Source: a virus
DNA length: 26,387 bases
Virus record (IMG/VR): IMGVR_UViG_3300028840_002752
Span: 1-26,387 of that record
Strand: one strand, 5' to 3'
Both the position numbers and the translations under genes were made by a program. Positions 342-22,837 of the stretch are shown piece by piece (within the stretch, counting starts at the first letter, position 1; each line of letters starts with the position of its first letter). The notes under the pieces were generated by a model, which saw nothing but the letters and a program-made list of their open reading frames with translations, was not told where the DNA came from and searched no databases.

Positions 342-2897
342 TTACCACCCTTCCTCGAAATTCTCGAACTGCTGAGGCGCCAACGGAGGCTGATCGAACC
401 AGGCCACCTGTAAGGTTGCTTCAAAAGCTGGCTCGTCCAGTATTGCTCCACCCCAGCCCTCGGGAATGAAAGACTCATTTGCTGAGTTGTCCACAAACGG
501 CTTTAACTGGTTGAACAGGGCGAAGTCTTGCCCCTCTGGAACAACCACTGTCTCGGCCGCCGGCGTTGTTTGTATCGTATAAGAGAACCTACTATCAGGA
601 TCAACGTCGAACATTTTGGGATCGTCTGCCCAGGCGTCTGGCACCGTACCGTGAACAGCCCCCTCAAGGTTCTCGAAGTACCGAGAAGGCACTTTAACCC
701 TGGACGTAACCCCTTGCACCAGGTCGATCAAGCCGACAACCTCGCGAATGTCCAGCTCCTCGTAAGTGCCGTGCTGGTTTGCGAAATAAAACTCCTCGGT
801 CGTGCTTCCTGAGCCGTCCCACCCAAAACCGATCTTGGCGCTGGTCTGGTCGGTGCTTTCTTCGTGGACAGAGAACTCCAGATCGGCGCCTGAGGCTGCT
901 GCAAATTTGGCGTTCATGTTGGCCACCAGGTCAGCCGCTGTGTCATAGGTGTCAGGATCGATCGTGATGTGCACCAGGTTCTCTTCGCTGGCTACATAGA
1001 TCCACATCTCATTCCTATTCGAGGGAACATTAATCGGGAATGTTCTCTCGTTGCCCACAAGCACGCCGTCCCAGAACCGGCAGGGGGGATCGTCTGGGTT
1101 AGTAAGGAACGTGCCCCGCCACCCCTGCTCGAAGTCCTCCGAACCATTCGGGAAAAACAGAGGATAAATATACCCGTCCGCCGTGGGGTCTGGTATCGCC
1201 TCAGCAACCTCGACCATGGTGCCCAGTATCGCTTGCACATTGCTTACCACGGTGTAGAGATTATCGTTGCCGGTTGAATCCTGAACGATTGCCTTAACCC
1301 CTGGATAAAAATACTTTCTCTTGTCGCCTGGGGTGATGAATGTCTTGGCCCCCTGGTTGACAAAAGTAACTTCACCACCGCCCAGCCACTCGGCCCAGCT
1401 CTTGATCGGCGCCTGGCTGATCGTTACCTCGTCGAGGTCCTCATAGATAGCCGTCCATTCGAATGTTTCAAACTGCGACTCGATCGACGTGCCGCCGGCA
1501 AACAGGGCAGCCACCGAGGGCGCTTCGTCGAATGTCTCAAAGAACCCTACATCATAGGCGCCGGTGTCCGTGGTGTCCTGGAATCCGAGCAGCCCGTGAA
1601 AATAATTATTTCCCCATACCGTATGATTGGGGAAGTTTAGATCCGTGTTGGCAGACCCTCCAATGATTTTAACACTGAGAAGGCCGCCCACGACGATCTG
1701 ACCGTTCCCAGCAACCTCGGCCTTACCTGTGACCGCGTTGGAAAGAAAGGCGTTCTGGAGGTCCTGGACGATTTCCTCGGCCGTTGTGGCTCCCACGGTA
1801 AGAACTGCTGTAAAGGCGGGCTCTCCGTCTAGCGATATTTCGAGCTCGTTGTTCGTTGGAGTTCTGGCTGGGATAGGCCAGACCGCTTTTGAAAGCACGT
1901 CCCCCCAGTATCCCCACACCTGACAGGTTGCAAGATCGCCAGCCTTCTCAGATTGCACCTTAAGCGACCCACCTGCCTGGGCCTCGCGTGCCATAAAATA
2001 GCCGTGCTGGACATACTGCTTAAGAATGGTTTCCAGCTCCTCGGCCGTGGCGTTCTGTGGGTCTTCGAAGTAAATATCGAACAGTTGAGCAAACTGCCCG
2101 AAGCCATACTGCTCCCTGGTGCCAAAAAGTAAGGTCGTGTTGGCTGTCCCCCCTTCGATGTCGATATAATTCTCTGTAGCCTGGGCCAGTGTTTTGATCA
2201 CTGGAACGGAGCCCTCGACAACAGCCACGATCAGATCGTCAACTGATAGCGTCGAAAATTCGGAGTTCAGTCTGTCGACCACCTGCTGAGCCGTAGTTTC
2301 TCCGCCGGCAAAAGTTGCCGTAACCTGAGCTTCTCGATTTATCGATATGAATAAAGTCGTCCCAGCACCAAGCGGCGCGATCGGATAAGTCGCCTGGGAT
2401 GCTATCTCGGCTCCCCACCCGTAATTATCAATATTCAAATACAGGATCGGAGGGATGATCAGGTTTGCCGGCACGCTTGCCAGCACGTCTTCGGTGACAT
2501 AGATCCTAGTGTTGGCGCCTGTGAATTCTATCGATTCGACTGTCCAGTATCCGTCGAGGTTTGTCTGTCCGAGCACGGTACCCTCTACCAGCACCGAAGC
2601 AGAGGGGGGCAGCAGGCGCAGCACGTCCCCAGCCACTTCGAAATAATTCGAGGGGGAGGTACCGACAGCGACGATCGACAGGCCCAGCACCTGATCTAGA
2701 TCATACGGATCGATCCCGCTCCAGATTTTGGCAAACGAGTCGAACCAGTTGAAACGCTCCGAAAGAACAAAGTCCTGGTATGTCCTGAACTTTGCCCAGC
2801 CTGGAAGCTGCAGGTAAGCCTCGAGTATCCAGTCCTCTGCCTGCCCAGGGCCAAGGCCAGCGATCGAAAAGTCCTTATTTTGGAACTCTGCAACCAT
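342..2897 (-). CDS. Large multidomain baseplate/tail-fibre-attachment protein (gpI position)
   Basis: This 851-residue protein directly follows gpJ; its ATG overlaps the gpJ stop codon (TAATG). In P2- and Mu-type phages this slot holds gpI, which links the baseplate wedge to fibres. Residues 20-75 are aromatic and acidic (WILEAYLQLPGW, FNWFDSFAKIW) and could be the wedge-binding part. The rest is beta-rich and holds three copies of a domain shared with other proteins here, at about 179-260, 349-423 and 629-707. Each has an opening strand (LFISINREAQVTATF, LEISLDGEPAFTAVL, MWIYVASEENLVHITI), then T(T/A)A..(V/I/L)V..(L/M)N. The first two end in IEGGTANTTLLF and IIGGSANTDLNF, while the third ends less typically. 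The protein is far larger than usual gpI proteins of about 200 residues. Baseplate role is likely from position; adsorption is inference. Confidence 0.6.
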   Translation of the reverse strand: MVAEFQNKDFSIAGLGPGQAEDWILEAYLQLPGWAKFRTYQDFVLSERFNWFDSFAKIWSGIDPYDLDQVLGLSIVAVGTSPSNYFEVAGDVLRLLPPSASVLVEGTVLGQTNLDGYWTVESIEFTGANTRIYVTEDVLASVPANLIIPPILYLNIDNYGWGAEIASQATYPIAPLGAGTTLFISINREAQVTATFAGGETTAQQVVDRLNSEFSTLSVDDLIVAVVEGSVPVIKTLAQATENYIDIEGGTANTTLLFGTREQYGFGQFAQLFDIYFEDPQNATAEELETILKQYVQHGYFMAREAQAGGSLKVQSEKAGDLATCQVWGYWGDVLSKAVWPIPARTPTNNELEISLDGEPAFTAVLTVGATTAEEIVQDLQNAFLSNAVTGKAEVAGNGQIVVGGLLSVKIIGGSANTDLNFPNHTVWGNNYFHGLLGFQDTTDTGAYDVGFFETFDEAPSVAALFAGGTSIESQFETFEWTAIYEDLDEVTISQAPIKSWAEWLGGGEVTFVNQGAKTFITPGDKRKYFYPGVKAIVQDSTGNDNLYTVVSNVQAILGTMVEVAEAIPDPTADGYIYPLFFPNGSEDFEQGWRGTFLTNPDDPPCRFWDGVLVGNERTFPINVPSNRNEMWIYVASEENLVHITIDPDTYDTAADLVANMNAKFAAASGADLEFSVHEESTDQTSAKIGFGWDGSGSTTEEFYFANQHGTYEELDIREVVGLIDLVQGVTSRVKVPSRYFENLEGAVHGTVPDAWADDPKMFDVDPDSRFSYTIQTTPAAETVVVPEGQDFALFNQLKPFVDNSANESFIPEGWGGAILDEPAFEATLQVAWFDQPPLAPQQFENFEEGW

Positions 2898-4471
2898 TAA
2901 ATCTCTGTCCCTGTGGCTCCGTTAATAAGAGTTAAAGTCCCCATTGCTGGGAACTGATAGTTTGCGATCTGTATGTCTTCATGTTCATCGTTCAGCTTGA
3001 ATTCGTCTTCGCTGGTTCCTATTTTTCTGATCCCTGTGGTGTCTCTTACTATGTTGTAAACGTCGCTTAAAGGTATTTCCCCCGCTGGATTGTCGTCTTC
3101 GTCTTTGTAATTCCAGCCGAAATCCACAAAGGGGTTAGCCATGCCGATCCCGAGCTGAATTTCAAGGCCTGAGTCAGTGGTCACATATTCCCCTATGAAC
3201 TGGCTCCCAGACGTGATCAGCGGTTCGAAATAATGACTCAATCTCTCTGTTACGCTGGCCTTCACCGTTGTGGCATTGGCGCCCGCTGTCAGATAAACCA
3301 CCGCGTAAACATCGACCGTCAAGTAAGGCGCCGTGTTCACAGCAGTTGTGAAGGAAATTACCTGCGGATAGGTCACCGTGATCCGCGTCTCGACAGCGTC
3401 AAGCAGCGCCTGGCTGGCTGTTCCTCCTCCATTGGGTACAATGTACAGGCGCCCCTCATTCTCGGGGATCTGGCTGTCTTCGTCGCTTGAGAGCATTAAT
3501 GCTCGAGCAACCCCTGCTATCTCGAGCGCCCTGAGCTCGAAGTCCTCCCTGGCGACAGTGCCGGCAGGTAAGCGCCTATTGTTTGGAATGTTCACGCGCG
3601 CCGCTGCGACAGTCTCGCGATCGATACCACCTGAGGCTTTTTCTGGATTGGTAACCGTCAAAACCGCTGTGTTACCAAGAGAGTCGGTGTATGTCTTGGC
3701 GAATTTCCTTAGTGAATTCTGGGCAACATTGCCAGAATCTCCGCCCCCTATTTCATAATCAATGTCGAATGTGCCCTCTGGAACCTTTCCGTTTGTGTTG
3801 TCTCCGAAATAGATCCAGCCGTAGTTGTCCTCGTCGACTATTACTTTGAAGTGCCTGGATGTCGGCCCGCTGTTCAGGAATGTTTCGACCTCTTCCCACT
3901 CACCGGCCGCCGTCGAGAACGCTGCGGATCCGTCCAAATAAGGAGCATACTGTAGTTTATATCGCTGGTTGTGCTTCCCTGTGCTGGTGTATGTATCCTG
4001 TTTAGATGTAGAGTGCCTCCATTGCAGCGTGCCCGTTGTATCACCAGACGGGATCACAACCTCGGCTTGAATTTCTCCGACGATAGGAGTGGGAACTTCC
4101 TGAGTTTTCACGACGTCTTTCTGTGCAAAAGTCAGAGTTCCAGGAAGCGGCCCGTTTTCTATGGTTACAGTTAGATCGGCAGTGGCTGCCACCTGGCCAG
4201 ATAACTGGTAACCCTGGCGCCGGCCGTGGTAGATCGCCGAGCGCCGCTCGTCCATGGTCGCCACAAACGACTCGCGCGCAGCCTTCGAAATGTAGTAATC
4301 ATTTCGAGACAAAACCCAGGCCATTTCCTTCCTTAGAAGGTTCATCATATTGGGCGAGTCTGGGTCTGTCATATCAGGGAAAGCTGAGTCCTGCAGGCTC
4401 CGAAGTCGGAGATCTGCAGAGTCAAAATCTCTCTCTGTGAAGTCGTATGTCTCCGTAAAAATCGCTGTCAT
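2897..4471 (-). CDS. Baseplate wedge protein, gpJ / T4 gp6-like
   Basis: A 524-residue protein of the Baseplate_J type, the wedge component that forms the ring around the hub and triggers sheath contraction. Residues 1-90 are a helical, charged N-terminus with the usual run DMTDPDSPNMMNLLRKEMAWV. The centre has YFGDNTNGKVPEGTFDIDY followed by GGGDSGNV, a pattern very typical of this family. The C-terminal half carries the expected NNRRLPAGTVAREDFE and a late STREP-like regular alpha/beta section ending in an acidic tail. The start ATG overlaps the gp25 stop (ATGA), and GAGGT lies just upstream. Neighbours gp25 above and the gpI-position protein below match the conserved W-J-I order. Residues about 95-240 are longer than in compact P2 gpJ and may be an extra domain. 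Confidence 0.88.
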   Translation of the reverse strand: MTAIFTETYDFTERDFDSADLRLRSLQDSAFPDMTDPDSPNMMNLLRKEMAWVLSRNDYYISKAARESFVATMDERRSAIYHGRRQGYQLSGQVAATADLTVTIENGPLPGTLTFAQKDVVKTQEVPTPIVGEIQAEVVIPSGDTTGTLQWRHSTSKQDTYTSTGKHNQRYKLQYAPYLDGSAAFSTAAGEWEEVETFLNSGPTSRHFKVIVDEDNYGWIYFGDNTNGKVPEGTFDIDYEIGGGDSGNVAQNSLRKFAKTYTDSLGNTAVLTVTNPEKASGGIDRETVAAARVNIPNNRRLPAGTVAREDFELRALEIAGVARALMLSSDEDSQIPENEGRLYIVPNGGGTASQALLDAVETRITVTYPQVISFTTAVNTAPYLTVDVYAVVYLTAGANATTVKASVTERLSHYFEPLITSGSQFIGEYVTTDSGLEIQLGIGMANPFVDFGWNYKDEDDNPAGEIPLSDVYNIVRDTTGIRKIGTSEDEFKLNDEHEDIQIANYQFPAMGTLTLINGATGTEI

Positions 4472-4851
4472 CTCGGTACCTCGACTCTAACAGTCCTTCG
4501 CTCAGGTTCAAGTTTAGCACGTTCCACGTATGTAATAGAAACGCTTGCCAAGTTCTTTTCGAAAGAAACTCCGGCAGTCATCGCTCTGTAGGCCGGCGCG
4601 TACGTGTTGATCTGGTCCGTCGCCTCTCTAAAAGCAATTGCGTTGCTCGTCACCGTGCTGCTGACATGCTCGTGAAGGAGTTCTCGCAGCCTGGTTCCAT
4701 ATTCTGAATCCCAGGGCAGCTCACCCTTTTCTATGCTCAGCAATAGCATGAGGTCTGCTTTTTCCAGGTCCAGGCCTGACACTGAGGCCAGGTCCCCTTT
4801 CCCGTTTAGCTGCACAGGAAACTTCAGCCCTATTAAATCCTTGCTCAGCAT
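4468..4851 (-). CDS. Baseplate wedge protein, gp25 / gpW-like
   Basis: The product is 127 residues starting MLSKDLIGLKFPV. I chose ATG 4851 because AGGAG lies 8 bases before it. An upstream in-frame start at 4884 would add 11 residues with no such site and overlap the previous gene more deeply. The ATG still overlaps the preceding stop (ATGCTGA). Family features are the N-terminal GLKFPVQLNGKGDLASVSG stretch, a helical middle with ELPWDSEYGTRLRELLHEH, and a C-terminal strand SVSITYVERAKLEPE. The Glu-Tyr-Gly-x-x-Leu motif is the hallmark of gp25-like proteins, which nucleate sheath assembly on the baseplate in T4, P2 and related injection systems. It sits directly before gpJ as expected. Confidence 0.9.
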   Translation of the reverse strand: MLSKDLIGLKFPVQLNGKGDLASVSGLDLEKADLMLLLSIEKGELPWDSEYGTRLRELLHEHVSSTVTSNAIAFREATDQINTYAPAYRAMTAGVSFEKNLASVSITYVERAKLEPERRTVRVEVPR

Positions 4852-5633
4852 TTTTGATCTCCTAACGCTACGGTGATCGCCCACTGCGGATCCACAATAG
4901 CAAGGTCGATTTGTTCCAGCAGATCCGCTAAGTCGTCAAGCAGGTCAATAATGGGTTCGAGCTGGTCTGCAAAGACTCCGTCGAGAATCTCGCCAAAGCA
5001 CGGTATCTCTGGACCACCAAAGAACCCCATGAAAATATTGACGATCAGAATAATTCGGCCGACTGCCTTCAAAGCAAGCGCAGTCTCGGCAAGAGAGTCG
5101 TTCATGGTGTTCTGAGCGCATGCCAGGAACCCCGCCTTGTTGACGTCCCCCAGGTCGGCCGCCCTGTCGATTTCCTCAGCCATTTCGACCAGACGATCCA
5201 GCAGGTACCTTAGATCGTCTGCCAGCCCTCGCAGCAAAGCGATCAGCGCCTGAATGATAGCCTTGACCATTCTGGGGATCGATAGCTGTGGGATCATCGA
5301 CAACAACTGGTTAATTTTTGACAGCAGCTCAGGAAAGCATTCGAAGATACCAGAGGGATCAAGGGATGTTGCAAAGTCGGTGAACGCTTCCAGGCATTTA
5401 AAGATCGCCAGGACTGTGTCCAGCACATTCATAAAGGGCTGTAAGAAGGCCGTAGCTGGGCCCAGTTGCCCCATGTAATTAAGAGGTATCTCTGTCGGAC
5501 TGGGTACCGAATTGATCGCCGTCAACAGGTTAGACAGGCAGGCGCCCCCAGGGAAGCAAATGTCTCCTATTTCTGCAATCGGTGGGATGTCGTTGCAGAT
5601 AAGGTCGGTTGCCACGTTCCAAGAAAAAGCCAT
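4845..5633 (-). CDS. Cysteine-rich hydrophobic helical protein of the baseplate region, unknown function
   Basis: I do not recognise this 262-residue protein. It begins immediately after the spike gene's stop codon (TAG then ATG, no gap) with only a weak ribosome binding site, so translation is probably coupled. It is rich in Leu, Ile and Ala, mostly helical, with amphipathic or hydrophobic runs around residues 105-145 (LSKINQLLSMIPQL, MVKAIIQALIALL) and 185-205 (AVGRIILIVNIFMGFF). It has eight cysteines, including DICFPGGAC near the N-terminus, which is many for a phage tail protein. A position between spike and gp25 is sometimes taken by PAAR tips or assembly factors, but no PAAR motif is visible. 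It could be a hub plug, an assembly chaperone or a membrane-active component; none is demonstrated. Confidence 0.7.
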   Translation of the reverse strand: MAFSWNVATDLICNDIPPIAEIGDICFPGGACLSNLLTAINSVPSPTEIPLNYMGQLGPATAFLQPFMNVLDTVLAIFKCLEAFTDFATSLDPSGIFECFPELLSKINQLLSMIPQLSIPRMVKAIIQALIALLRGLADDLRYLLDRLVEMAEEIDRAADLGDVNKAGFLACAQNTMNDSLAETALALKAVGRIILIVNIFMGFFGGPEIPCFGEILDGVFADQLEPIIDLLDDLADLLEQIDLAIVDPQWAITVALGDQKC

Positions 5634-6224: not shown

Positions 6225-6232
6225 GTTGCCCC

Positions 6233-7573: not shown

Positions 7574-7910
7574 TTATGAACCTCCGCTCTGGGTCCAGGA
7601 TCTTTGTAAAAAGAGTATTTTTCGAAGGAACAACGATTATCTGACCAGCTTTTAATTTAATGAAAGGATCGATCACCGGCTCGGGCTGAAAGTCTGCGAT
7701 ATATCTCCACAGGGTATTTGCTTGAAAAATAGGAGCATACCAAAAAGCAGCGATGTCCTCCCATTTTTCGCCCTCTTTGACGGTGTGCTCTATGTTGTCG
7801 TCCAGGTCCTGGTATGGGTAAGGCTCGTATTCTGTGGTGTACAGATACCCCCTGGGATCATACTGCTCTTTGCAGAGCTGGTAAGGGCTGTATATCGTCA
7901 GTGTTGCCAT
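7566..7910 (-). CDS. LysM-domain tail/baseplate protein (gp53-like adaptor)
   Basis: The product is 114 residues starting MATLTIYSPYQLCKEQ. ATG 7910 is preferred because AGGAG precedes it at about nine bases and the previous gene ends four bases before. An in-frame start at 7982 would overlap that gene by 68 bases. Residues 42-96 match a LysM module: HTVKEGEKWEDIAAFWY at its start and KLKAGQIIVVPS at its end. In phage and related contractile systems such modules (T4 gp53, Afp7-type) usually hold hub and wedge together rather than bind cell wall. Place between the tube-adaptor-like protein and the hub supports that. A cell-wall-binding role is possible but less likely. Confidence 0.8.
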   Translation of the reverse strand: MATLTIYSPYQLCKEQYDPRGYLYTTEYEPYPYQDLDDNIEHTVKEGEKWEDIAAFWYAPIFQANTLWRYIADFQPEPVIDPFIKLKAGQIIVVPSKNTLFTKILDPERRFIID

Positions 7911-7914
7911 GTGC

Positions 7915-12755: not shown

Positions 12756-14957
12756 TTAACTGCCACTTGCAACCGTACGAGTGACGATTAATTCAACATA
12801 CTTGGCATCGTCCGAGAAACCAAGCCCTAACTTTCCGCGCATGCGCTGCTGAGCTCTAATTTCTGGACCGTTGAGGGCCTCTGACACTTCGAAAAATGTC
12901 GGCCTGGCTGGGTCAAACGCGTCGGCCGGCAGAGTAGCGAGGAACCTATTGCCCGAGCGCTCCCAGTCCCCACGGTTTTTCGCGTTGTTTTTGGAGTGCT
13001 TGACCCAGATCGAATCTGACTTTAGAGAAGCAACGATATAAATGGCTCCGCGCGCGTGCCATTGCCTGGGCCAGTCTCCATTTATTTTCAGGTTGTCGCC
13101 TCCGTCGAAGTGGTAGGCAGTGTTTTTGAACTTGCGGATCGGTTCTATGTTCCTGTCTGCGATCAGGTTCGCTTTTTCCTGGAACTTCAGATCCTCGAAC
13201 TCCACGCCCAGGCAATTTTGAATCACTCCGCGATCGTCCTTCACTCCGGCCGTGCTGACAAAGATCGTGTCTGGGTTGTTCCTGTCGTTGTAAGCGAACC
13301 TTCCCATTTTGGCCATTTCCGATCCGATCGTCACGGTTTCCTCGTCGCCAAAGATAGCGCTCGAGGGATTCGCGATTTTGATCCTGGGCCATGCACAGCA
13401 GCCGAACTCGATCGTATTATAGAGATAATTCTCGCTCCATGTCTTCATTTGCGTGGCTGTGGAAACGTCGCCAGGTCCTGGCGTGGGATGTACAGCGTAA
13501 ATCTCTCGGTTCCTGTGCGTCGAGTATGTGTTGATCCCCGCGTGCACTGTTGCCGAGGCGTGCCCTGGTACTGAGAAAAGCCGAATGTCTTCCTCGTCGT
13601 CCAGCGCATAGAGCCCTGTGTATCCCGCCAAACTTCCCACGAAGTCTGAGTCCAGCAGCCCTGAGAGCCCGTCGTCTCCGCCGGTCATAGGTCCCCAGGT
13701 GCCATTCGTCGGCCGTGCCTGCAGCGCCGTGTAACCTGAGCCTCCCATGAGATCCGCGTCGACCAGGTTGATCAGGTCGGAACCTGTCAGGGTGTTATTG
13801 ACGATTGCCAGCACATAGCGATCGTCTGACTGGTCCATGGTAAGATTCGCCCAGCTTTCCTGGATATCGCCGTCCTTGGTTACGGACAGGTCAAAGCGCT
13901 CGGCGTCTCCGTTGCTCGCGTCTGCAACCACCAGGTAGAGGCTGTTTACATAGGCGCCTGGAGTTTTTCCGTTTACCGTCAACGTGGTGATAGTGCCGGC
14001 CGCTGAGCCAGAGTGGACCGCTCCGTCGAAGCCAAACTTTGTTTGAGCGAGCCCTGTCATCTTTACGCTGGAAAGTGGGCCCGTGGTTCCACTGGTTACG
14101 GTGAGTTCGCCACCGCTCTCTATCGATATTGTGGCACCGACCAGGGGCAGAGCTTCAATGTGCGCCTTGGCCTCTGCTGCGGTAACGGCTGCGATGTTGA
14201 CCACGTCACCGGTTCCAGCCGTCGGAGCAGCCCAGGTGATCGTATTGGTACCCCCTGCGATGATCGCCACCGTGGATCCGGTTCCCTTGGTGTCGCTCTG
14301 AATGTGAACCTCACCAGCGTTGTCATAGGCGTGGCAGCCTGGGATCCCTGCTGCGTTTATTTGATCGACCACCTCTGCAACCGTGGTTGTTGAGCCCGAG
14401 AATGTGACTGTTTTGGTGCTTCCCCCGTCGATCGACAGGTTCAAAGTGAGGCCGTCCTGATCTCCAACTGGCCAGGTGTCGTTTGACTCGACATAGCCAG
14501 CCGCAGCGTTAAAGGTAACTGTTTGAGGGCCCCCTCCGTCTATCTCGAAGATCAGGGTGTCGGCCGGTTCCAGCTCAAAAGGCTCTGCGCCGCTGCTGGT
14601 TTCTGTGCCGGCCGTCGGTGTCCCCGAGGTATATGTGGAGAGATCAAGCGTACCTATTACGGCTGTGTAGCTCGTCGGGTTGCTTATGTCCGTGTAGTGA
14701 CATGTTCTCACCACGTCGAGGGCTGTTCCTCCGTTGTCGAAGAAAGAATCGACACCGATCGAAATATCCGAGTCGTCGTTGTCGATGTAGCCCCCGAAAA
14801 TTTTACGATACTCTTCAGGGCTGAAAACAGTTGTTCGCTCTCCCACTGGGCCCCGCTCAGTGAGTCCGACGACGGCCCCTCTTGAGACATCCACGCCGGT
14901 GATGTTCTGCTGTCCCTGTTGCCATTTAACATCAATTCTTGAAGCGCCAGTAGGCAT
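12756..14957 (-). CDS. Contractile tail sheath protein with inserted domains
   Basis: A 733-residue sheath, large for the family (about 390 in P2 to 660 in T4). N-terminal signature: VDVSRGAVVGLTERGPVGE and FSPEEYRKIFGGYIDN (residues 22-60). The C-terminal sheath core is clear: FAYNDRNNPDTIFVSTAG, LIADRNIEPIRKFKNTAYH, QWHARGAIYIVASLKSDSIW, RPTFFEVSEALNGPEIRAQQ. Between them, residues about 128-312 hold inserted beta domains of the type shared with other proteins here. One copy (about 162-245) seems to interrupt another (128-160 plus 250-312). Such insertions normally decorate the sheath exterior. The start follows TTTGGAGG at the end of a 58-base leader with a small hairpin. High expression would be expected. 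Confidence 0.93.
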   Translation of the reverse strand: MPTGASRIDVKWQQGQQNITGVDVSRGAVVGLTERGPVGERTTVFSPEEYRKIFGGYIDNDDSDISIGVDSFFDNGGTALDVVRTCHYTDISNPTSYTAVIGTLDLSTYTSGTPTAGTETSSGAEPFELEPADTLIFEIDGGGPQTVTFNAAAGYVESNDTWPVGDQDGLTLNLSIDGGSTKTVTFSGSTTTVAEVVDQINAAGIPGCHAYDNAGEVHIQSDTKGTGSTVAIIAGGTNTITWAAPTAGTGDVVNIAAVTAAEAKAHIEALPLVGATISIESGGELTVTSGTTGPLSSVKMTGLAQTKFGFDGAVHSGSAAGTITTLTVNGKTPGAYVNSLYLVVADASNGDAERFDLSVTKDGDIQESWANLTMDQSDDRYVLAIVNNTLTGSDLINLVDADLMGGSGYTALQARPTNGTWGPMTGGDDGLSGLLDSDFVGSLAGYTGLYALDDEEDIRLFSVPGHASATVHAGINTYSTHRNREIYAVHPTPGPGDVSTATQMKTWSENYLYNTIEFGCCAWPRIKIANPSSAIFGDEETVTIGSEMAKMGRFAYNDRNNPDTIFVSTAGVKDDRGVIQNCLGVEFEDLKFQEKANLIADRNIEPIRKFKNTAYHFDGGDNLKINGDWPRQWHARGAIYIVASLKSDSIWVKHSKNNAKNRGDWERSGNRFLATLPADAFDPARPTFFEVSEALNGPEIRAQQRMRGKLGLGFSDDAKYVELIVTRTVASGS

Positions 14958-14986
14958 TTGTTACCTCCAAATTGTTTTTTTCTTTT

Positions 14987-15003: not shown

Positions 15004-15016
15004 TGTTATCACATAC

Positions 15017-15982
15017 CTAGCTCGCCGTTAAAATGATTTCCGGCGAGTCCGGATCCTCAACGGTCCAGCCTATATCTGTAAGAGTTCCAGCCAGAACCGT
15101 CAAGTCAACTTCTTCTATGACTAATCCGACGGTGCACATCTTCAGCCCGTCGTTCTCTGGTCCCATGTCAAATGAGGGCATTCCCTCCTTGGGGATCAGC
15201 ATGGGATACTCATAATCCTCGGCCGCCTCGGTATCAAACGAAGGCGGCGCGCATTTCAGCTTCGGAACGTCCAGCAACGCGTCAAGGAACGCCTGAGACA
15301 TTGCCATAATCTCCCTGGGGTGCTCCTCCCTGGAGTACATTTGAATCGATTCCATGACTATATTAACCACGGTTCCAGGCCTGTACTCGTTAAAGTCGGT
15401 TGCGCTGGTCATGTATTCTTGCACCCCCAGCGCCTGAGCGTCTTCGTCGTATTCTGTATCGACCCCATTGATCCAGATAAGAGGGAGCTCGCCCTGCAGA
15501 ATCTGCTCGAGCTGCGCGTCTTCACCCTCAGAATAACTGCGCCCCATGGTGATCGCGATGTTTTTTGTGATGTGCCGGCGCAGGTAAGCAACCAGGCGCC
15601 CTAGCACGTATTCCAGCGCCTGCTCGTCTGTGAACAAAGGCCGGTTGTAAGTATACGAATTAAAAACGACCACTTCGCCAGGTATCTCGGCGCCGCTGCT
15701 GTCCAGGTTGTACAGGGTGACCGCCACGGGATCGCCGCTGTCTCCCATGTCGTCGCCTTCGTAAGTCGGTACCGTGGCGATCGCCTGGGTGGGAGTAAGT
15801 GCGAAGGCTGCAGGGGACTGCAAACTTCCAAACATAACTTTGATTGACTGGAACGCAGGGCCTGAAGAGTCCAATGGAGGATCGGGGGGCATGGAGAAAT
15901 TAGTGCCCGTTATTTGAATCAAATTGCGGCCGCGCGTCGTGCCCCCTGTCGGTGTTATGCTGCTGATAGTAGGAACTCCCAT
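15017..15982 (-). CDS. TIG-domain protein in the tail terminator position
   Basis: The product is 321 residues starting MGVPTISSITPTGGTTRG. ATG 15982 overlaps the previous stop (TAATG) with AGGAG ten bases before it. An in-frame start at 16048 would add 22 residues inside the previous gene. Residues about 1-115 form an IPT/TIG Ig-like domain: PTISSITPTGGTTRGRN, LIQITGTNF, VMFGS, and a closing strand VVVFNSYTYN. Residues about 116-321 are a separate alpha/beta part beginning FTDEQALEYVLGRLVAYLRR, with LIWINGVDTEY and CTVGLVIEEVDLTVLAG. Standing between the completion protein and the sheath, it occupies the place of tail terminators, which cap tube and sheath at the neck. The TIG call is good; the terminator role is inferred from order. 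Confidence 0.7.
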   Translation of the reverse strand: MGVPTISSITPTGGTTRGRNLIQITGTNFSMPPDPPLDSSGPAFQSIKVMFGSLQSPAAFALTPTQAIATVPTYEGDDMGDSGDPVAVTLYNLDSSGAEIPGEVVVFNSYTYNRPLFTDEQALEYVLGRLVAYLRRHITKNIAITMGRSYSEGEDAQLEQILQGELPLIWINGVDTEYDEDAQALGVQEYMTSATDFNEYRPGTVVNIVMESIQMYSREEHPREIMAMSQAFLDALLDVPKLKCAPPSFDTEAAEDYEYPMLIPKEGMPSFDMGPENDGLKMCTVGLVIEEVDLTVLAGTLTDIGWTVEDPDSPEIILTAS

Positions 15983-16575
15983 TACATTGATACTCCTAAC
16001 ATAGCAGCGAGGCCGCTTACAAATCTTTCCTCGCTTCCCTTTATCCACTCATCATGCGCAGGGTTCAACCAGGGCCTTGCTGGAATTCTGCGCCTTAGTT
16101 TTTGGCCCACTCTCCACGGCGCCCGTAAAATACCGTATTTCATGAGCACGAAAGAAAACCGGCGCATTTTTTCCGTCACCACGACCGTGTAAGTTTTGGT
16201 TCCCCCTTCGTGGATCGCTGCCAGGTCGGCAAGTTTCTTGCCTTTTTTGCTGCGCGCAGTCCTGTGAACTCCCACGGTGTAATGGTACATATTCTCTCTT
16301 TTGGGTTTCACCGCGTTGACCATTGCCGCCGTGTCAATGAGAGCTTTGGTGCTGCTTCCTCCACCCGTCCTGATACCCCTTAAAAGAATGGTCGTCCTGG
16401 ATATGGGTCTTATTTTCTTGCCGCCTGGGCGCTGCGCTATCAGCCCCCCCTTTATGTTATTAGCCAACATCCAAGCTTCTCGAGATAGCATGGTCGTGAC
16501 CGCCTTGTTAAAAGCGCCCACGATCATTCGGTACTCTTCGAGCACTGGGGGGCTGTTGTCTTGAACCCTTATCAT
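15982..16575 (-). CDS. Tail completion / HK97 gp10-like virion morphogenesis protein
   Basis: A 197-residue basic protein whose ATG overlaps the preceding stop by four bases. Family marks are an N-terminal helix with REAWMLANNIKGGL, then the arginine-rich RPISRTTILLRGIRTGGG and a conserved loop VGVHRTARSKKGKKLADLAA running into IHEGGT. Near the end comes IPARPWLNPAHDEWI. The E-G-G-T followed by R-P-(W/F)-L/I-x-P pattern is shared by HK97 gp10-type tail proteins and the P2/Mu virion-morphogenesis (gpS-like) family. The protein acts at the head-tail interface during tail completion. Position between neck and terminator genes agrees. No ribosome binding site close to the ATG was seen, so coupling to the previous gene is likely. 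Confidence 0.82.
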   Translation of the reverse strand: MIRVQDNSPPVLEEYRMIVGAFNKAVTTMLSREAWMLANNIKGGLIAQRPGGKKIRPISRTTILLRGIRTGGGSSTKALIDTAAMVNAVKPKRENMYHYTVGVHRTARSKKGKKLADLAAIHEGGTKTYTVVVTEKMRRFSFVLMKYGILRAPWRVGQKLRRRIPARPWLNPAHDEWIKGSEERFVSGLAAMLGVSM

Positions 16576-17387
16576 TCCGTTTCTATCTCGCGATCCTTCC
16601 TGCAGTGTATATAAAAAAGATTTATCTCAGGCGTACCGAAAAACGCCAGCCCGTACCCTGCCGGCTCAACATCCTTGATCCACATCCCTGGGGGGACAGG
16701 GAAGTCCATTGCGATCGCGCCGTTTAGCTGCAGGATGCGATCGACCCTATCGCCCACGTGTAACTTTGGGAGGCCGTCTGCTTTCATAAGCCCTGCTGTT
16801 GCCAGGTGGTCTTTCCTGAGAACTATCACTATATCGGCTTTATCCGACTCACCGCCGGCCGTCAGAGTTCGATCCCCCCAGTCATCTCGGTCTAACTGGC
16901 ATTTTAAAGTCACACCAGCGAGCTCACGCCGCCTGCCAGCGCCCGTTTGAGTTCCGTCTGCCCTGGGTAGCGGCGCCCTCCAAATGTCATCATACGCGCC
17001 GTCCTCGACCTCCTGAGCAGGGAAACCCAGCAGGGCGCCGGCAGGTCCTTCGACTAGTACAGACCCACCTTCACCCTCCGTATTTGTGCAAATTATGACT
17101 TGCCCCTCCGAATCTTCGACAGCGAAGCCATTTGTTATCAGTGCGTTTATCTGATCGACCACCTCCGCCGCAGTCGCATGAACGGGATCCGCAAAAAGCG
17201 AGCTGTCTATCGCTATTGTTTGAAGCCCTCCCACATCGAAGGTTACTTCCAGATTAATGGTGGGATAGGGTGAAAAGTCCCAGGTTTCTGGATCTCCGTT
17301 TATGTTGGCCTTATTGGTGGTGATCGTGTCCGTGCGATAAAATACCGCCTGGAACTTCTGGATTAATGCTGTGTAAAAACTGGTCAT
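16572..17387 (-). CDS. Putative neck (head-tail joining) protein with inserted beta domain
   Basis: A 271-residue protein overlapping both neighbours by ATGA, lacking a clear ribosome binding site and so probably translationally coupled. Residues about 42-125 are a copy of the domain shared with sheath and decoration protein: INLEVTFDVGGLQTIAIDSS, HATAAEVVDQINALITNG, EGQVIICTNTEGEGGSVLVE, LLGFPA. The remainder (about 131-271) is beta-rich with VIVLRKDHLATAGLMKADGL, LHVGDRVDRILQLNG and VPPGMWIKDVEPAGYGL. This looks like the small barrel of head-closure or stopper proteins, which also sit between connector and completion genes. The barrel assignment is inference; the shared domain is seen directly in the residues. 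Confidence 0.6.
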   Translation of the reverse strand: MTSFYTALIQKFQAVFYRTDTITTNKANINGDPETWDFSPYPTINLEVTFDVGGLQTIAIDSSLFADPVHATAAEVVDQINALITNGFAVEDSEGQVIICTNTEGEGGSVLVEGPAGALLGFPAQEVEDGAYDDIWRAPLPRADGTQTGAGRRRELAGVTLKCQLDRDDWGDRTLTAGGESDKADIVIVLRKDHLATAGLMKADGLPKLHVGDRVDRILQLNGAIAMDFPVPPGMWIKDVEPAGYGLAFFGTPEINLFYIHCRKDREIETE

Positions 17388-18397
17388 ACAAACTTCATTT
17401 GTAGGGGTCTTTTAAATCGCTCAAGTATCTGGTCGATTATGGTGCTATTGGTAAAGCCGTTTGTATTTGTGTTTTCTGAGCTTTCCGGATCTGCAAATTC
17501 GACTTCCTGATCCCTTGTTTTCTGGCGCGTTATACGGTTTTTAAGGATGACCGCGATCGATTCGTCAGAGAGCGCAGGGTAGCACCTGTTGACGGTTATC
17601 ATGCGAGCACACCACTCGATCAGAGCTGGAACCCCTCCATATTCAAGAGGTACCTGGCTATTATTCGCAGTTTCACCGCAGACGGCGCCCCTTGCCAGCT
17701 CGGTGAAGCCAAAAATGCCCCAGATTTTTGTTTCTTGCCTATCCTTCGGAAAGTGTCCCCCGCCCAGGCTGTAGAGGCGCGTTCCTTCGTCGACCAGGTA
17801 ACCGTCTGAATAAGTGATCATTGGGTTTTTCCTGTCGTCTGGGGAGGTCAGGCCGTTGCGAAGGTATCGGTTGTTCACTTCCAAAGTCTCTATGTTTTCC
17901 TCTTCGTCGTTCATGGTGATTTTCTGCAGGGCAATAATGGGGATATCCAGAAACAGCCTGGGCAGCCCCTCACCGGTGACTTCGAAGCACTGGTACCTAG
18001 GAACGAACCAAGACAGACAGTAATCCTCAATGTACCTTGTAGCGAGCTCTATGTACTCCTCAACCGTGTCGTCGTCGACGTCCGTGGCCAGGACCCCCTC
18101 TTTTCTAATAGCTGCCAAGGTCGTGTAAGCATCCTTCTCGACGACGTCGGCCGCGTACGGTGTGCCGTATGGAGTGCCGTCTGCCTTTATGAGCGTGGCC
18201 TGATAGCTCCATGCCGTGTCGCCCGTGGGATCCTGGTAGACATACCGCTCAACGACACCTCTTAAAGGGGGTCTGGTGGTAGCGTGGGAAATCTCGACGA
18301 AGCCACCCCCTGGATCCCGTTCTATTTTTAGCTCGACATAATCCTCATCAATGCGATCTTGCACGTCTGGGATTACAAATTCTAGGCGTATAGTCAT
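17384..18397 (-). CDS. Head-tail connector (gp6/gp15-like) with N-terminal Ig/FnIII-like domain
   Basis: A 337-residue protein starting behind GAGGGTGAGCC. Residues about 1-84 look like a fibronectin-III or Ig-like sandwich (YVELKIERDPGGGFVEIS, YVYQDPTGDTAWSYQATL, KADGTPYGTP). From about residue 90 the pattern becomes that of adaptor proteins that dock under the portal: YTTLAAIRKEGVLATDVDDD, TVEEYIELATRYIEDYCLSW, then LFLDIPIIALQKITM with a strand and NNRYLRNGL. A C-terminal helical section follows (WCARMITVNRCYPAL, IAVILKNRIT). The helix-rich core with D-x-P-I-x-x-(L/I) before a strand is standard for gp6-like connectors. Typical members are 90-200 residues, so this is long. Connector role is fairly secure; the N-terminal fold is inferred. 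Confidence 0.72.
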   Translation of the reverse strand: MTIRLEFVIPDVQDRIDEDYVELKIERDPGGGFVEISHATTRPPLRGVVERYVYQDPTGDTAWSYQATLIKADGTPYGTPYAADVVEKDAYTTLAAIRKEGVLATDVDDDTVEEYIELATRYIEDYCLSWFVPRYQCFEVTGEGLPRLFLDIPIIALQKITMNDEEENIETLEVNNRYLRNGLTSPDDRKNPMITYSDGYLVDEGTRLYSLGGGHFPKDRQETKIWGIFGFTELARGAVCGETANNSQVPLEYGGVPALIEWCARMITVNRCYPALSDESIAVILKNRITRQKTRDQEVEFADPESSENTNTNGFTNSTIIDQILERFKRPLQMKFV

Positions 18398-18464
18398 GGC
18401 TCACCCTCTAAGGTGATTCTGACACGAGACTATTTTGAAGGTCAAGCGACGGCCGCTTAAATAG

Positions 18465-18896
18465 TTACTCAGCAGGTTCGGCAGGCGTGGGCGCAGGTGC
18501 TGGGGCAACCTGAGCAGGCGCCGCAGCAGGCGCAGGCTCTGCCGTGGCTGGTGCTTCCTCTTTCTGGGGTGGTACTTCCTTCGGTTTTGGTGGGTCAAGG
18601 ATGTTCCAGACATAACCGATCACGACAGGGACAAACAGCTTGCCGACAGCGTTCTTGATTGTCGTAATTTCCTTTACGTCAAAGTGAGGATTGTCCTCCT
18701 CGTGGATCCTCTGCGCCAGCATAAACGCCTTGAATTTCTCGTCGCCTGTGGCCTTGGCGTCTGCGTTCATTAGCGCTTGAATACAGGCGGATCTGATAGT
18801 CATTTCCGTTTTGGGCCCGCCTGGTTCTTTGGGAGGGTCCTTTATTGGTGCCCCTTCCAAATCTAAAACTTTCTGAGTAACGTCGATCGTTGGCAT
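18465..18896 (-). CDS. Small phage protein with Pro/Ala-rich tail, unknown function
   Basis: A 143-residue protein starting behind AAAGGGGC. Residues about 30-100 form a helical core: MTIRSACIQALMNADAKATG, FKAFMLAQRIHEED, VKEITTIKNAVGKLFVPVVI. This resembles a common small phage protein near head-tail genes (length about 100, unknown function) from memory. Residues about 102-143 are low-complexity Pro, Ala and Glu, likely disordered. It is the first gene downstream of a good sigma70-like promoter at 18936-18964, unlike other genes here. It could therefore be made separately from the head proteins. I cannot assign a function. Confidence 0.68.
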   Translation of the reverse strand: MPTIDVTQKVLDLEGAPIKDPPKEPGGPKTEMTIRSACIQALMNADAKATGDEKFKAFMLAQRIHEEDNPHFDVKEITTIKNAVGKLFVPVVIGYVWNILDPPKPKEVPPQKEEAPATAEPAPAAAPAQVAPAPAPTPAEPAE

Positions 18897-18935
18897 CGTC
18901 TTCGCCCCTTTCTTTTTAGGTTCAAACTGAAATCC

Positions 18936-18964
18936 ATTTTAAACACTGGCTTTGTGTTCGTCAA
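18936..18964 (-). promoter_or_regulatory. Sigma70-type promoter inside the structural operon
   Basis: Minus strand: TTGACG (18964-18959), 17 bases, then TAAAAT (18941-18936). Each hexamer matches the bacterial consensus at five of six positions with ideal spacing. The predicted start near 18929 gives a leader of about 33 bases to the ATG at 18896. It lies in a 96-base gap, not inside a gene. Confidence 0.65.
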
Positions 18965-18992
18965 TCGATAATGGTAGTAAAAATATGGAGAT

Positions 18993-19613
18993 TTAGCCCA
19001 GTTCTGAGCTGTAAATCTGAACCCCTGGATACCTTACGTAAGCAAAGCCTCCGTTGGTTCCCTCTGCGTTTTTGTAGGGTTGATCGTCGGCTATTTTGCA
19101 AGTCATGGAATCTGGCAGACCATTCTCAACGGAAGACATCGCAGACGGTACCAGGATCACAGGCTTGCCGTCCGCTAAAAAGTCCAGGGTGATATCCCAC
19201 TCGTCACCGGTCTGCCCCGCGTTGGCATCCGAGGCCGGTTCGATTTTTTTCTTTTTCGACCGCTTTGTGAAGTCCTTGCGCGCCTTGTAAACAGTCTGCC
19301 CCAGCTCTGTCTCACCGCTAGAGTAAGAGACGACCATATCACCACCCTCGTGAATCACTGCAGCCATGAACCGAATATACGCCCTAGGGACCACAACGAT
19401 CCTATTATCTGGAGGATCTGTCTGGCCTGGGTATGCTAACCCCTGGGCTGTCACCTTCCATGTGCTATCCGAGGGCCCCACTGGCCACGTGGAAGAGTCG
19501 CACCAGTTCGGACTGGTTACCGAATCCCTAGAAAGCCAATCTAGCTTGGCAAGCCCTATAGCGGACAGCCATTTCCTGAGCATGTGTTCTTGCTCTGTAT
19601 AGGTTAACTCCAT
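18993..19613 (-). CDS. Unknown virion-region protein
   Basis: I do not recognise this 206-residue protein. It begins behind AAGGAGG, inside the end of the fibre-like gene. Residues 1-30 are helical (EQEHMLRKWLSAIGLAKLDW) and the rest looks beta-rich with charged loops: NRIVVVPRAYIRFMAAVIHE, DMVVSYSSGETELGQTVY, a basic stretch KARKDFTKRSKKKKIEP, then WDITLDFLADGKPVILVPSA and GGFAYVRYPGVQIYSS. The Arg/Lys cluster at about 112-122 may contact nucleic acid or a partner. Coupling to the fibre-like gene and the promoter right after it suggest it ends a transcription unit. It might be a chaperone or partner of the fibre (inference). Confidence 0.6.
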   Translation of the reverse strand: MELTYTEQEHMLRKWLSAIGLAKLDWLSRDSVTSPNWCDSSTWPVGPSDSTWKVTAQGLAYPGQTDPPDNRIVVVPRAYIRFMAAVIHEGGDMVVSYSSGETELGQTVYKARKDFTKRSKKKKIEPASDANAGQTGDEWDITLDFLADGKPVILVPSAMSSVENGLPDSMTCKIADDQPYKNAEGTNGGFAYVRYPGVQIYSSELG

Positions 19614-19614
19614 T

Positions 19615-20895
19615 TTAGTAAACCTCCTTACTTATTATCCAGCAATTCAATAACGCTGTTCCAACCGGTCCCTTAGATTCTAGGGTTTCACCGAATGATC
19701 CACTATAGGATCCCGCTGTAGCATATCCCTGCTTGGCTGTGGAATAGGCAAAAATAAAATCTCCGATATTGACTGAGCCCCTCATTAAAACTTTCCAGGG
19801 CAGCCCGTTGACTGCTACGGTGATCCAGTTACCAGCCCCTGAAGGTCCTCCTGTCACCACTGGCCCCATGACATTGTTATCGTCAAGCGTTGTGGTTGTA
19901 ACCGCTGCCCTTGAGTTTGCTGAATCATTCGCAACCACGTCCCCCTCTACCAAAGAGCCCCCGCTTCGATTTTCTACTCTTACGACTTCACCTGGAACGA
20001 TCCAGCAGTTCCCGTCGTAATAGAACATCTTGCCGAAGGTCGTGCACCAGCAGGAATCTCCCACCCTGGCGCCCGAGATTGCTTCCATGTTCGCCTTGGT
20101 TTGAGAGCCCCAGTGTCCTCGGCCTGCGTAGATCAGCGCCGTCTCACCGTCGTTGACCTTCAAAAATTCGTGCTTTTCTCCACTGAATGAAGAGGGGGCG
20201 TCTGGCAGCTCCAAAAAGTCTGTCTGGTGAGGATTTCCAGAGGTTACCTGCGAGTGAGTATAGGCTGCCTTTGCCTGGGCTGCTGTGACCTGGTTCGCTC
20301 CGCCATAGTCAAGCGCCTGGTCGGTGTCCTGGGTGTGGAACTCATCGATCTGGGCCTGGCTAACAAACTTGTGAGTCGTTGCGCTGTCGTCCAGATCGTC
20401 TGGGTCCAGAACAACCACGCCGGTCTGAGTGTTTACGGATTGGACCGAGTCGTCTGCTGGTATTCGCTGCCATACTGATCCATCATAGATCAGAGTGTCG
20501 CCTATTCCCACAGTGATCGACCCAGATCCGAAGTCTCTTGAGCCTGCAGTGCTGCACCTGTAAAAATCGCCGTTTGTCCCTGTACCGTCTGCCAATGTTG
20601 GAGTATTAGTCAGAATGTCATAGGCGCCTTTGTACTCCATAGCCGAAGTGGGCAACTGTCCGAAAGGCAGCCTCGCTGTAGCGTCCAGCGTGGCGACTCC
20701 GTTGGCTGCTCCCTTCTCAGCAATAGGAATGTAGGCACCCGCCCCAATACTGAGAGTTTGCCATGCAGCTCCGTCCCAATAGGTGAACTCGCCTGTATCT
20801 GAATTGTAGATCAGCTTGCCAACTACCGGATCGGTGATCGCCGAAATCTCGGCAGCCGTTAACTGAGGGGCATTAATTCCGCCTGGTGGTCGCAT
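19615..20895 (-). CDS. Fibre-like protein encoded in the head module (possible head fibre)
   Basis: A 426-residue protein with modules usual in phage fibres. Residues 26-49 have GKLIYNSDTGEFTYWDGAAW. Residues about 57-82 have IAEKGAANGVATLDATARLP, the N-terminal fibre pattern. Residues about 104-175 have GTNGDFYRCSTAGSRDFG, GIGDTLIYDGSVWQRIP and VQSVNTQTGVVVLDPDDLDD. The C-terminal part (about 300-426) is a beta domain with VVRVENRSGGSLVEGDVVAN and MRGSVNIGDFIFAYSTAKQG. The start follows AAGGGGGG closely. Most myoviruses encode tail fibres after the baseplate, so a fibre between capsid and connector genes suggests a head fibre; misplaced tail fibre is the alternative. Confidence 0.72.
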   Translation of the reverse strand: MRPPGGINAPQLTAAEISAITDPVVGKLIYNSDTGEFTYWDGAAWQTLSIGAGAYIPIAEKGAANGVATLDATARLPFGQLPTSAMEYKGAYDILTNTPTLADGTGTNGDFYRCSTAGSRDFGSGSITVGIGDTLIYDGSVWQRIPADDSVQSVNTQTGVVVLDPDDLDDSATTHKFVSQAQIDEFHTQDTDQALDYGGANQVTAAQAKAAYTHSQVTSGNPHQTDFLELPDAPSSFSGEKHEFLKVNDGETALIYAGRGHWGSQTKANMEAISGARVGDSCWCTTFGKMFYYDGNCWIVPGEVVRVENRSGGSLVEGDVVANDSANSRAAVTTTTLDDNNVMGPVVTGGPSGAGNWITVAVNGLPWKVLMRGSVNIGDFIFAYSTAKQGYATAGSYSGSFGETLESKGPVGTALLNCWIISKEVY

Positions 20896-20904
20896 GGTCC
20901 CCCC

Positions 20905-21339
20905 TTATGTGTCGTCGCGTCGTATTTTGACGATTAGCTGAGCAGGCGTTCCCGCCGGCGCCGCGTCAAACGACACTACAAACTTGATTTTATCAGCGTT
21001 CAGGTTGTCGAAATCAAGCCACGCGTTCTCGGCTGTCACCCCTGAAAATTCAACCGTGGGATTGTCAACCATGGCATTTTGATCCAGGCGGTAAGCTGCC
21101 GGTGTGATATTAGTCCAGGCATCGATATCGACGACAGTGCCCTCCTGATCCGTCTGAGCTGGTTTAATGTCCGCAAAAATAGACACGCTCATGGTGACGT
21201 CGGCCGCGCCGGTGTGTCCTCCCACCGCCTTAATAAGCGCAGAGAAGTCCTTTTTCTGGTCCATAACATCGCCAGCAATGGGGACCTCAAATTCGATGTC
21301 GTCCCCTGAGGTGATGTTCAGATTGGTATAAAGTTTCAT
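20905..21339 (-). CDS. Small beta-rich protein of the head module, unknown function
   Basis: A 144-residue protein starting behind TAAGGAGC. It looks like a single beta-sandwich: MKLYTNLNITSGDDIEFEVP at the start, VTMSVSIFADIKPAQTDQEG in the middle, and IKFVVSFDAAPAGTPAQLIV followed by KIRRDDT at the end. It is acidic, has no cysteine or membrane segment, and ends with two strands suited to self-association. Location between a tail-bearing head protein and the fibre-like gene suits a minor decoration protein or a fibre-anchoring collar, but no family was recognised. Confidence 0.62.
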   Translation of the reverse strand: MKLYTNLNITSGDDIEFEVPIAGDVMDQKKDFSALIKAVGGHTGAADVTMSVSIFADIKPAQTDQEGTVVDIDAWTNITPAAYRLDQNAMVDNPTVEFSGVTAENAWLDFDNLNADKIKFVVSFDAAPAGTPAQLIVKIRRDDT

Positions 21340-21382
21340 AGTCGGCTCCTTAAGGCGATGGAAAAACGGTTCAGGCTACTAT

Positions 21383-22090
<708 letters not shown>

Positions 22091-22098
22091 GATCAAAA

Positions 22099-22113
22099 CT
22101 CCTTGCCCCAAAG
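22099..22113 (-). promoter_or_regulatory. Ribosome binding site overlapped by a complementary element
   Basis: Minus strand CTTTGGGGCAAGGAG (22113-22099) contains the AAGGAG used by ATG 22090. Its first 11 bases are perfectly complementary to TTGCCCCAAAG (22148-22138), which lies in the loop of the hairpin just upstream. Pairing would cover the first two bases of the ribosome binding site. Confidence 0.5.
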
Positions 22114-22170
22114 TTAAAAACGGGGGGCCAATCAGAGCTTTGGGGCAAAGACTTCACTGACCAGCCCCCC
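22111..22170 (-). terminator. Terminator-like hairpin downstream of the decoration gene
   Basis: On the minus strand GGGGGGCTGGTCAG (22170-22157) pairs with CTGATTGGCCCCCC (22135-22122). This makes 14 pairs, three of them G-U, with a 21-base loop. Then come CG, TTTTT, AACTTT. The U-run is on the minus-strand side only, so the direction fits. The loop also holds a small stem (CTTTG/CAAAG). It would reduce read-through from the capsid genes. Confidence 0.65.
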
Positions 22171-22201
22171 ATAGGAGTTAACAAGCCCGAGGGCTCAGTA
22201 A

Positions 22202-22837
22202 CTACTCAGAGAATAGAACTGCTTCAAACGTGTAACCCGAAAGGTCCGTGGACGCTGCGCCGTCACCGACGTCCTCGCCTGTTGCTGGATCAACGATCAT
22301 CAGCTTGGGATCGTCGCTTCCCTCGTTCACTGTCGTGGGGAACAGATAGACCGCGTTTGCAGTTCCTCCGGTGATCTCCAGAGAGGCGTCTGCACCGTTT
22401 CTCTCGGTCTTCACCGTTACCTGGGCGCCGTCGTCGTAGGCATGCAGCCCCGTCTCCGCCTCGATTGAGGCTGCCAACTGGGCCCGCGTGGTGTGAGTAC
22501 CTGACAAGGTCAGGGTTTGCTCTGCTCCGCCGTTCAGCTTGTAAATGATCGTTTTTGTGTCCTGGTCTGCGACTGGCCAGCCTGCGGCCGCACTCTGCAC
22601 CGTTGCCGGAGTGTGAACGATCCTCGGGGTGTATTGCGGATTTGCTCCGTAAGTCAACACACCCATGCAGCCGATCGCCGTGACGTTCTTGCCGATTGCA
22701 GCTTGCAAAGCCGCGTTGGCATCCGAGCCTCCGTCTGGGTAGGTCACATCCCCCGTGAATCTTATATAATCCACGAAGGTGGCCTCGGCGCCACTGGCAC
22801 CCATTTCAGCTTTGACTGTTACGTTTCCTATAGTCAT
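22202..22837 (-). CDS. Putative capsid decoration protein with inserted beta domain
   Basis: A 211-residue protein directly after the capsid gene, behind AAGGAG. Its ends look like one small decoration protein. The start has VTVKAEMGASGAEATFVDYI and VTYPDGGSDANAALQAAIG. The end has PKLMIVDPATGEDVGDG and STDLSGYTFEAVLFSE, a C-terminal pattern I associate with proteins encoded beside major capsid proteins in many phages. Residues about 86-168 between these ends are a copy of the shared domain (WPVADQDTKTIIYKLNGG, LHAYDDGAQVTVKTERNGAD, LEITGGTANAVYLF). It closely resembles the sheath copy (WPVGDQDGLTLNLSIDGG). The insert presumably projects from the capsid surface. A minor tail role is unlikely from position. 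Confidence 0.7.
   Translation of the reverse strand: MTIGNVTVKAEMGASGAEATFVDYIRFTGDVTYPDGGSDANAALQAAIGKNVTAIGCMGVLTYGANPQYTPRIVHTPATVQSAAAGWPVADQDTKTIIYKLNGGAEQTLTLSGTHTTRAQLAASIEAETGLHAYDDGAQVTVKTERNGADASLEITGGTANAVYLFPTTVNEGSDDPKLMIVDPATGEDVGDGAASTDLSGYTFEAVLFSE

What the first reader, a model, noticed from the sequence alone, without database searches (positions are those of the whole stretch)
777..22582. One beta-rich domain reused in four different virion proteins
A segment of about 80 residues recurs in the 851-aa baseplate protein (three copies: 2363-2118, 1853-1629, 1013-777), the sheath (14576-14022), the neck protein (17264-17013) and the decoration protein (22582-22334). Shared pattern: strand pair with (D/N)GG..(Q/K)T(V/L/I)T(F/L), helix with (T/A)TA(A/E)(E/Q)(V/I)V.(Q/R)(I/L)N, strand pair with V.I.S/T.T.G..(S/A)S(V/L), and (G)GTAN..LF. 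The same inserted unit in head, neck, sheath and baseplate suggests a modular surface coating, for example glycan or host-surface binding all over the virion. Recurrence is seen in the residues; function is inference. Bases are quite diverged, so spread within the module is not recent.
Basis: partly seen in the sequence, partly recalled or inferred. Interest (0 to 1): 0.75.

Follow-up and report, generated by a model that had tools for sequence, protein, structure and literature searches.

The report
FliD-like surface module reused across virion
An uncultured phage carries one small flagellum-cap-like domain in its head, neck, sheath and baseplate proteins, in the sheath even one copy inside another; the fold itself is known from other phages, but this degree of reuse, nesting and sharing between head and tail proteins was not described in the papers I could read.

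Summary
The recurrence is real, but the copy list needs correcting. Profile comparison links the segments in the decoration, neck and sheath proteins and two of the three baseplate segments (HHalign 83-100% for every pair; control segments 0-9%). The third baseplate segment (1013-777) is not supported. The sheath segment holds two copies, one inserted inside the other; a model with mean pLDDT 81 shows two beta-beta-alpha-beta-beta-beta units. A probable degenerate half copy follows the first baseplate copy. The module has the fold of FliD D2-D3, flagellin D2 and the lateral domain of several phage sheaths (XM1, PhiTE, Mu). That this fold recurs in sheath, nozzle and auxiliary capsid proteins of different phages is already published (PMC12846349). 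New here: six secure copies in four virion proteins of one window (more, in five proteins, in a related 93-kb contig); the nested cassette found also in a head protein of another phage; and a replaced cassette region in one pair of close relatives. Most likely these are outward-facing accessory domains carried in surface loops and exchanged by recombination. Adhesion is plausible but untested. New variant of a known kind.

The parts
22334..22582 (-). module copy in the 211-aa protein encoded after the major capsid gene (putative decoration protein, ORF 22202-22837)
   Evidence: leave-one-out profile iE 2.7e-15; HHalign 93-100% to the sheath, neck, bp1 and bp2 copies
17013..17264 (-). module copy in the 271-aa putative neck/connector protein (ORF 16572-17387)
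   Evidence: leave-one-out iE 1.7e-9; HHalign 86-98% to the other secure copies
14217..14471 (-). inner sheath module, complete, nested in the outer module (sheath ORF 12756-14957)
   Evidence: leave-one-out iE 4.5e-16; model EEHEEE, pLDDT about 86-93 over most of it
14499..14573 (-). outer sheath module, N-terminal strand pair
   Evidence: profile piece at residues 129-153; strands E9-15 and E20-25 of the cassette model
14019..14210 (-). outer sheath module, helix and C-terminal strands
   Evidence: leave-one-out iE 7.1e-4; H136-145 and three strands in the model; HHalign of the composite outer module 83-97% to the other secure copies
2118..2363 (-). baseplate module copy 1 (851-aa protein, ORF 342-2897)
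   Evidence: leave-one-out iE 2.1e-9; HHalign 83-98% to the other secure copies; EEHEEE locally at pLDDT about 59-81
1629..1853 (-). baseplate module copy 2
   Evidence: leave-one-out iE 3.5e-8; HHalign 86-96%; EEHEEE locally at pLDDT about 51-81
1893..2111 (-). probable degenerate C-terminal half of a further module, directly after copy 1
   Evidence: HHalign 77% to neck, 75% and 82% to two modules of relatives, lower to the rest; not certain
777..1013 (-). segment claimed as baseplate copy 3: NOT supported
   Evidence: leave-one-out iE 0.51; HHalign at most 13%; EEHEE order predicted at pLDDT 38-60 only

Best explanation
A roughly 80-residue module with the FliD D2-D3 / sheath lateral-domain fold is carried by at least four virion proteins of a contractile-tailed phage, probably in surface loops. 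In the sheath a second copy sits in the loop between strand 2 and the helix of the first. The copies are old at each position and are inherited with their host protein, but the nested cassette also moves between proteins and between phages by recombination. Shown: homology, nesting (by model), conservation across distant relatives, presence of the same cassette in a head protein of another phage, replacement of the cassette region in one close pair. Inferred from solved sheaths: the modules point outward. Inferred and untested: they act as accessory surface contacts (weak adhesion to host or environmental surfaces) and not as parts of the assembly or contraction machinery.
For: Homology of copies. 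Nested EEHEEE in EEHEEE, mean pLDDT 81. Fold relatives are flagellins, FliD and phage sheath and nozzle proteins; XM1 and Magia sheath domains found by sequence profile at E 3.4e-6 and 2.4e-5. Conserved in decoration, neck and sheath proteins of phages whose capsid protein is 36% identical. Cassette in a head protein next to the major head gene of another phage, 38.9% identical to the sheath; outer modules of sheath and head protein group at 96/97, inner ones of three sheaths with the head protein at 97/89. Insertion into Baseplate_J-type proteins of relatives where XM1 and Magia have a short loop. Replacement in L015 versus L051: codons 146-255 dS 1.46, dN 0.27; codons 1-145 and 331-755 dS 0.21, dN at most 0.01. 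Lateral sheath domain reported not to take part directly in contraction: PMC12846349; extra sheath domains lie away from the tube: PMC9230969.
Against: No binding partner, ligand site or experiment. VIA Z values (up to 8.3) are moderate and could in part reflect a common arrangement; Foldseek gave no PDB match at E 0.001 or better. Pfam Flagellin_IN is below its curated cut-off for the window sheath. The neck1 gene of the same close pair is replaced as a whole, so the sheath replacement may be ordinary mosaicism. AU tests do not settle module movement between positions. Insertion in decoration and neck proteins was not shown against module-less homologs.
Confidence: 0.55

Rival explanations
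1. The modules are structural: neighbouring copies on sheath, capsid or baseplate touch each other and stabilise the virion.
For: Published for the extra sheath domain of Staphylococcus phage 812 as a suggestion (PMC9230969); decoration proteins in general cement capsids (own knowledge).
Against: The lateral domain of the PhiTE-type sheath is reported not to take part directly in contraction (PMC12846349); the inner sheath module varies strongly between two otherwise nearly identical sheaths, which is unexpected for an interface that must fit its neighbours.
Confidence: 0.2
2. The modules are tolerated passengers: surface loops accept insertions at little cost, and recombination spreads them without a selected function.
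For: Nested insertion and occurrence in many unrelated host proteins; general mosaicism in the close pair.
Against: Copies are kept at the same positions in phages whose capsid proteins share 36% identity; outer sheath copy has dN 0.006 at dS 0.69 in the close pair, i.e. strong purifying selection.
Confidence: 0.2
3. The resemblance is convergent or low-complexity: short beta-rich Thr/Gly-rich sequence that looks alike by chance.
For: The composition is biased in that direction, and bp3 looks alike without scoring.
Against: Nine control segments of the same proteins score 0-9% while the copies score 83-100%; decoration and inner sheath copies share even the lead-in WPVADQ/WPVGDQ.
Confidence: 0.02

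Closest known systems
Lateral/insertion domain (InD) of type 2 tail sheath proteins: Vibrio phage XM1 gp6 (7KH1), PhiTE, Mu, E217, A-1(L)
   Same: Same fold (VIA Z 4.8-6.5); XM1 domain found by sequence (E 3.4e-6; HHalign 95% to the inner sheath copy); inserted after the sheath N-terminal part.
   Different: Here two copies are nested in the sheath, and homologous copies occur in three other virion proteins of the same phage.
FliD D2-D3, flagellin D2 and Pfam Flagellin_IN (PF07196)
   Same: Same order of elements and best structural matches (Z about 5-8.3); four of 17 modules hit Flagellin_IN, best E 9.3e-5.
   Different: Window sheath is below the curated cut-off (17.4 against 22.7 bits); these are phage virion proteins, not flagellar ones.
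Same fold in podovirus nozzles and auxiliary capsid proteins (8i4m, 7ey9, 7qof, 8giu as listed in PMC12846349)
   Same: The recurrence of this fold in different classes of virion protein is already published.
   Different: There it is noted across different viruses; here four proteins of one phage carry sequence-related copies, with nesting and cassette sharing.
Ig-like domains of tailed phages (Fraser et al. 2006, cited in PMC9230969)
   Same: Works alike in pattern: accessory surface domains on many virion proteins, exchanged horizontally, with suggested weak carbohydrate binding.
   Different: Different fold: a helix between two and three strands; no Pfam Ig-type hit in the modules, although a TIG domain was found in a neighbouring protein.

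Membership tests
Sheath lateral/insertion domain, FliD D2-D3-like fold | strand-strand-helix-strand-strand-strand unit of about 80 residues | tested here: met
   Cassette model, both inner and outer unit, mean pLDDT 81; bp1 and bp2 locally.
Sheath lateral/insertion domain, FliD D2-D3-like fold | structural match to FliD, flagellin or sheath insertion domains | tested here: met
   VIA Z 6.5 to XM1 sheath at 26% identity, about 7 to FliD, 8.3 to Vibrio flagellin; moderate Z, but all top rows are of these classes. XM1 domain also by sequence profile, E 3.4e-6.
Sheath lateral/insertion domain, FliD D2-D3-like fold | position between the N-terminal part and the rest of the sheath | tested here: met
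   Sheath residues 14-85 match solved sheaths; the cassette follows at 125-313.
Pfam Flagellin_IN (PF07196) | score above the curated cut-off | tested here: not met
   17.4 bits against 22.7 for the window sheath; four of 17 isolated modules hit at best E 9.3e-5.
Ig-like domain | all-beta Ig sandwich / Pfam Ig-type match | tested here: not met
   No Ig-type Pfam hit in the modules; model has a helix between strands 2 and 3.
Surface adhesion module | binds a glycan or host surface | not testable with these tools
   Needs purified modules and binding assays.

The most novel reading that the evidence does not exclude
The phage lineage keeps a shared pool of one exchangeable surface module that it displays on head, neck, sheath and baseplate at once, grows by inserting modules into modules, and trades between head and tail proteins, so that the whole virion coat can be diversified by swapping one kind of part.
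Probability: 0.25. Interest if true: 0.7.

Novelty: new variant of a known kind. Interest (0 to 1): 0.5.

Why it matters
It extends a published observation (one FliD-like fold in several virion proteins of different viruses) to one phage that carries it in at least four proteins, with sequence homology strong enough to follow its movement. Nested insertion and sharing of a cassette between a head protein and a sheath show how phage surfaces gain accessory domains, and give a concrete system for asking what the lateral domain of sheath proteins does.

Tried and rejected
tblastn of the sheath cassette, of the decoration protein, of a consensus module and of the neck C-terminal half against 50,697 phage records: no match, so isolated relatives were found only through XM1's own segment. 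Genes after the capsid gene in eight other phages with related capsid proteins were compared as possible module-less decoration proteins: no convincing homology. The full baseplate model has mean pLDDT 42 and was not used for fold search. Whether the sheath inner modules of the Terriglobia phages were replaced by a decoration- or baseplate-type module: the tree hints at it, but AU tests do not reject one origin. Same-genome decoration and sheath modules are not consistently closer than cross-genome pairs, so no clear gene conversion. Third baseplate copy rejected for lack of profile support. Ig-like and chance/low-complexity readings rejected.

Full report
Setting. The window is an IMG/VR virus record with a structural gene block of a contractile-tailed phage, all on the minus strand: capsid (Phage_capsid, PHROG 1623), head-tail adaptor, Neck1-type protein, sheath, tape measure, Baseplate_J. 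The sheath identity is supported by solved sheath proteins matching residues 14-85. 'Decoration' and 'neck' for the 211- and 271-aa proteins, and 'baseplate' for the 851-aa protein, are positional inferences.

Observation. Leave-one-out profiles recover every named copy except the third baseplate segment. With ortholog alignments, HHalign gives 83-100% for all pairs among decoration, inner sheath, outer sheath, neck, baseplate 1 and baseplate 2; the third baseplate segment reaches at most 13%, and nine control segments stay at 0-9% against the modules. The sheath segment is not one unit: profile pieces at residues 129-153 and 253-311 flank a complete copy at 166-240. An AlphaFold2 model of the cassette (mean pLDDT 81, pTM 0.50) gives strands 9-15 and 20-25, then a complete EEHEEE unit (47-108), then helix 136-145 and three strands: one module inside the loop of another. 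A probable C-terminal half copy follows baseplate copy 1.

What the module is. VIA-align ranks Vibrio flagellins (Z up to 8.3), FliD D2-D3 of many species (about 7), the XM1 sheath (6.5, 26% identity) and the sheaths of A-1(L), PhiTE, Mu, Sf14, E217 and Milano, then T7-type nozzles. These Z values are moderate, and Foldseek alone gives no PDB match at E 0.001 or better, but sequence adds support: an expanded module profile finds the XM1 and Magia sheath domains at E 3.4e-6 and 2.4e-5, and Pfam Flagellin_IN is hit by four of 17 modules. The XM1 authors describe this domain as an insertion in the sheath N-terminal domain, similar to FliD D3 (PMC10457771). The phage Adele paper states that the lateral sheath domain is found in sheath, nozzle and auxiliary capsid proteins, FliD and flagellin, and does not take part directly in contraction (PMC12846349). 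The fold and its wide distribution are therefore known.

Distribution. Relatives come from 93-kb contigs in an FCB MAG and a Terriglobia MAG. The module is kept in decoration, neck and sheath proteins of both, although the Terriglobia capsid protein shares only 36% identity. It is also in the baseplate ortholog and in a 713/780-aa tail protein with two copies. In other contigs of the FCB MAG it interrupts a Baseplate_J-type protein at a point where the XM1 and Magia proteins have a short loop. The complete nested cassette lies in a head protein encoded next to the major head gene, 38.9% identical to the window sheath over residues 88-300. In a 38-row tree the outer modules of sheath and head protein group together (96/97), as do inner modules of three sheaths and the head protein (97/89); decoration, bp1 and bp2 form their own clades. 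The cassette thus moved as a unit; the direction is unresolved, and AU tests do not settle other movements.

Exchange. Two close relatives (L015, L051) have sheaths 94% identical overall. Codons 146-255 have dS 1.46 and dN 0.27; codons 1-145 and 331-755 have dS about 0.21 and dN at most 0.01; codons 256-330 have dS 0.69 and dN 0.006. The cassette region was replaced, and the inner module differs far more in protein than the outer one. This is one case, and the neck1 gene is replaced as a whole in the same pair, so general mosaicism contributes.

Mechanism. Shown: homology, nested arrangement (model), conservation, cassette sharing, one replacement. Inferred: outward exposure, from solved sheaths. 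Inferred and untested: accessory adhesion, as proposed for extra sheath domains (PMC9230969). A stabilising role and a passenger role are the main rivals.

Judgement. The novelty of these last points is against the papers I could search only.

Noticed in passing
window 2454-2690 and 1152-1376 (851-aa protein); L050:9482-11821: A second small repeated domain type ('TGNDxxYTVV...T.VTV.E.IP..TADG'): two segments of the 851-aa protein match each other (HHalign 62%), and one matches a stretch that interrupts a module in a tail protein of a relative (34.6% identity, E 4.8e-6).
   Followed up: partly
window 15017-16048: The 343-aa protein between Neck1 and the sheath has an N-terminal TIG (Ig-type) domain (Pfam E 1.3e-6), a further accessory surface-type domain in this virion.
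   Followed up: no
L053:5553-6872: The 439-aa sheath (PHROG 205, E 2.4e-87) of the phage whose head protein carries the cassette appears by eye to hold its own diverged insertion of similar pattern (VTINGQEATIDSG...); not tested.
   Followed up: no
L015:1885-2535 versus L051:10703-11347: The Neck1-type gene is replaced as a whole between these close relatives (pS 0.66, pN 0.30, against pS about 0.15-0.35 in neighbouring genes).
   Followed up: partly
window 25637-26386: An Asp-Thr-Asp repeat tract in this gene coincides with a break in the DNA alignment between the window and contigs over 99% identical next to it, so the tract probably varies quickly.
   Followed up: no
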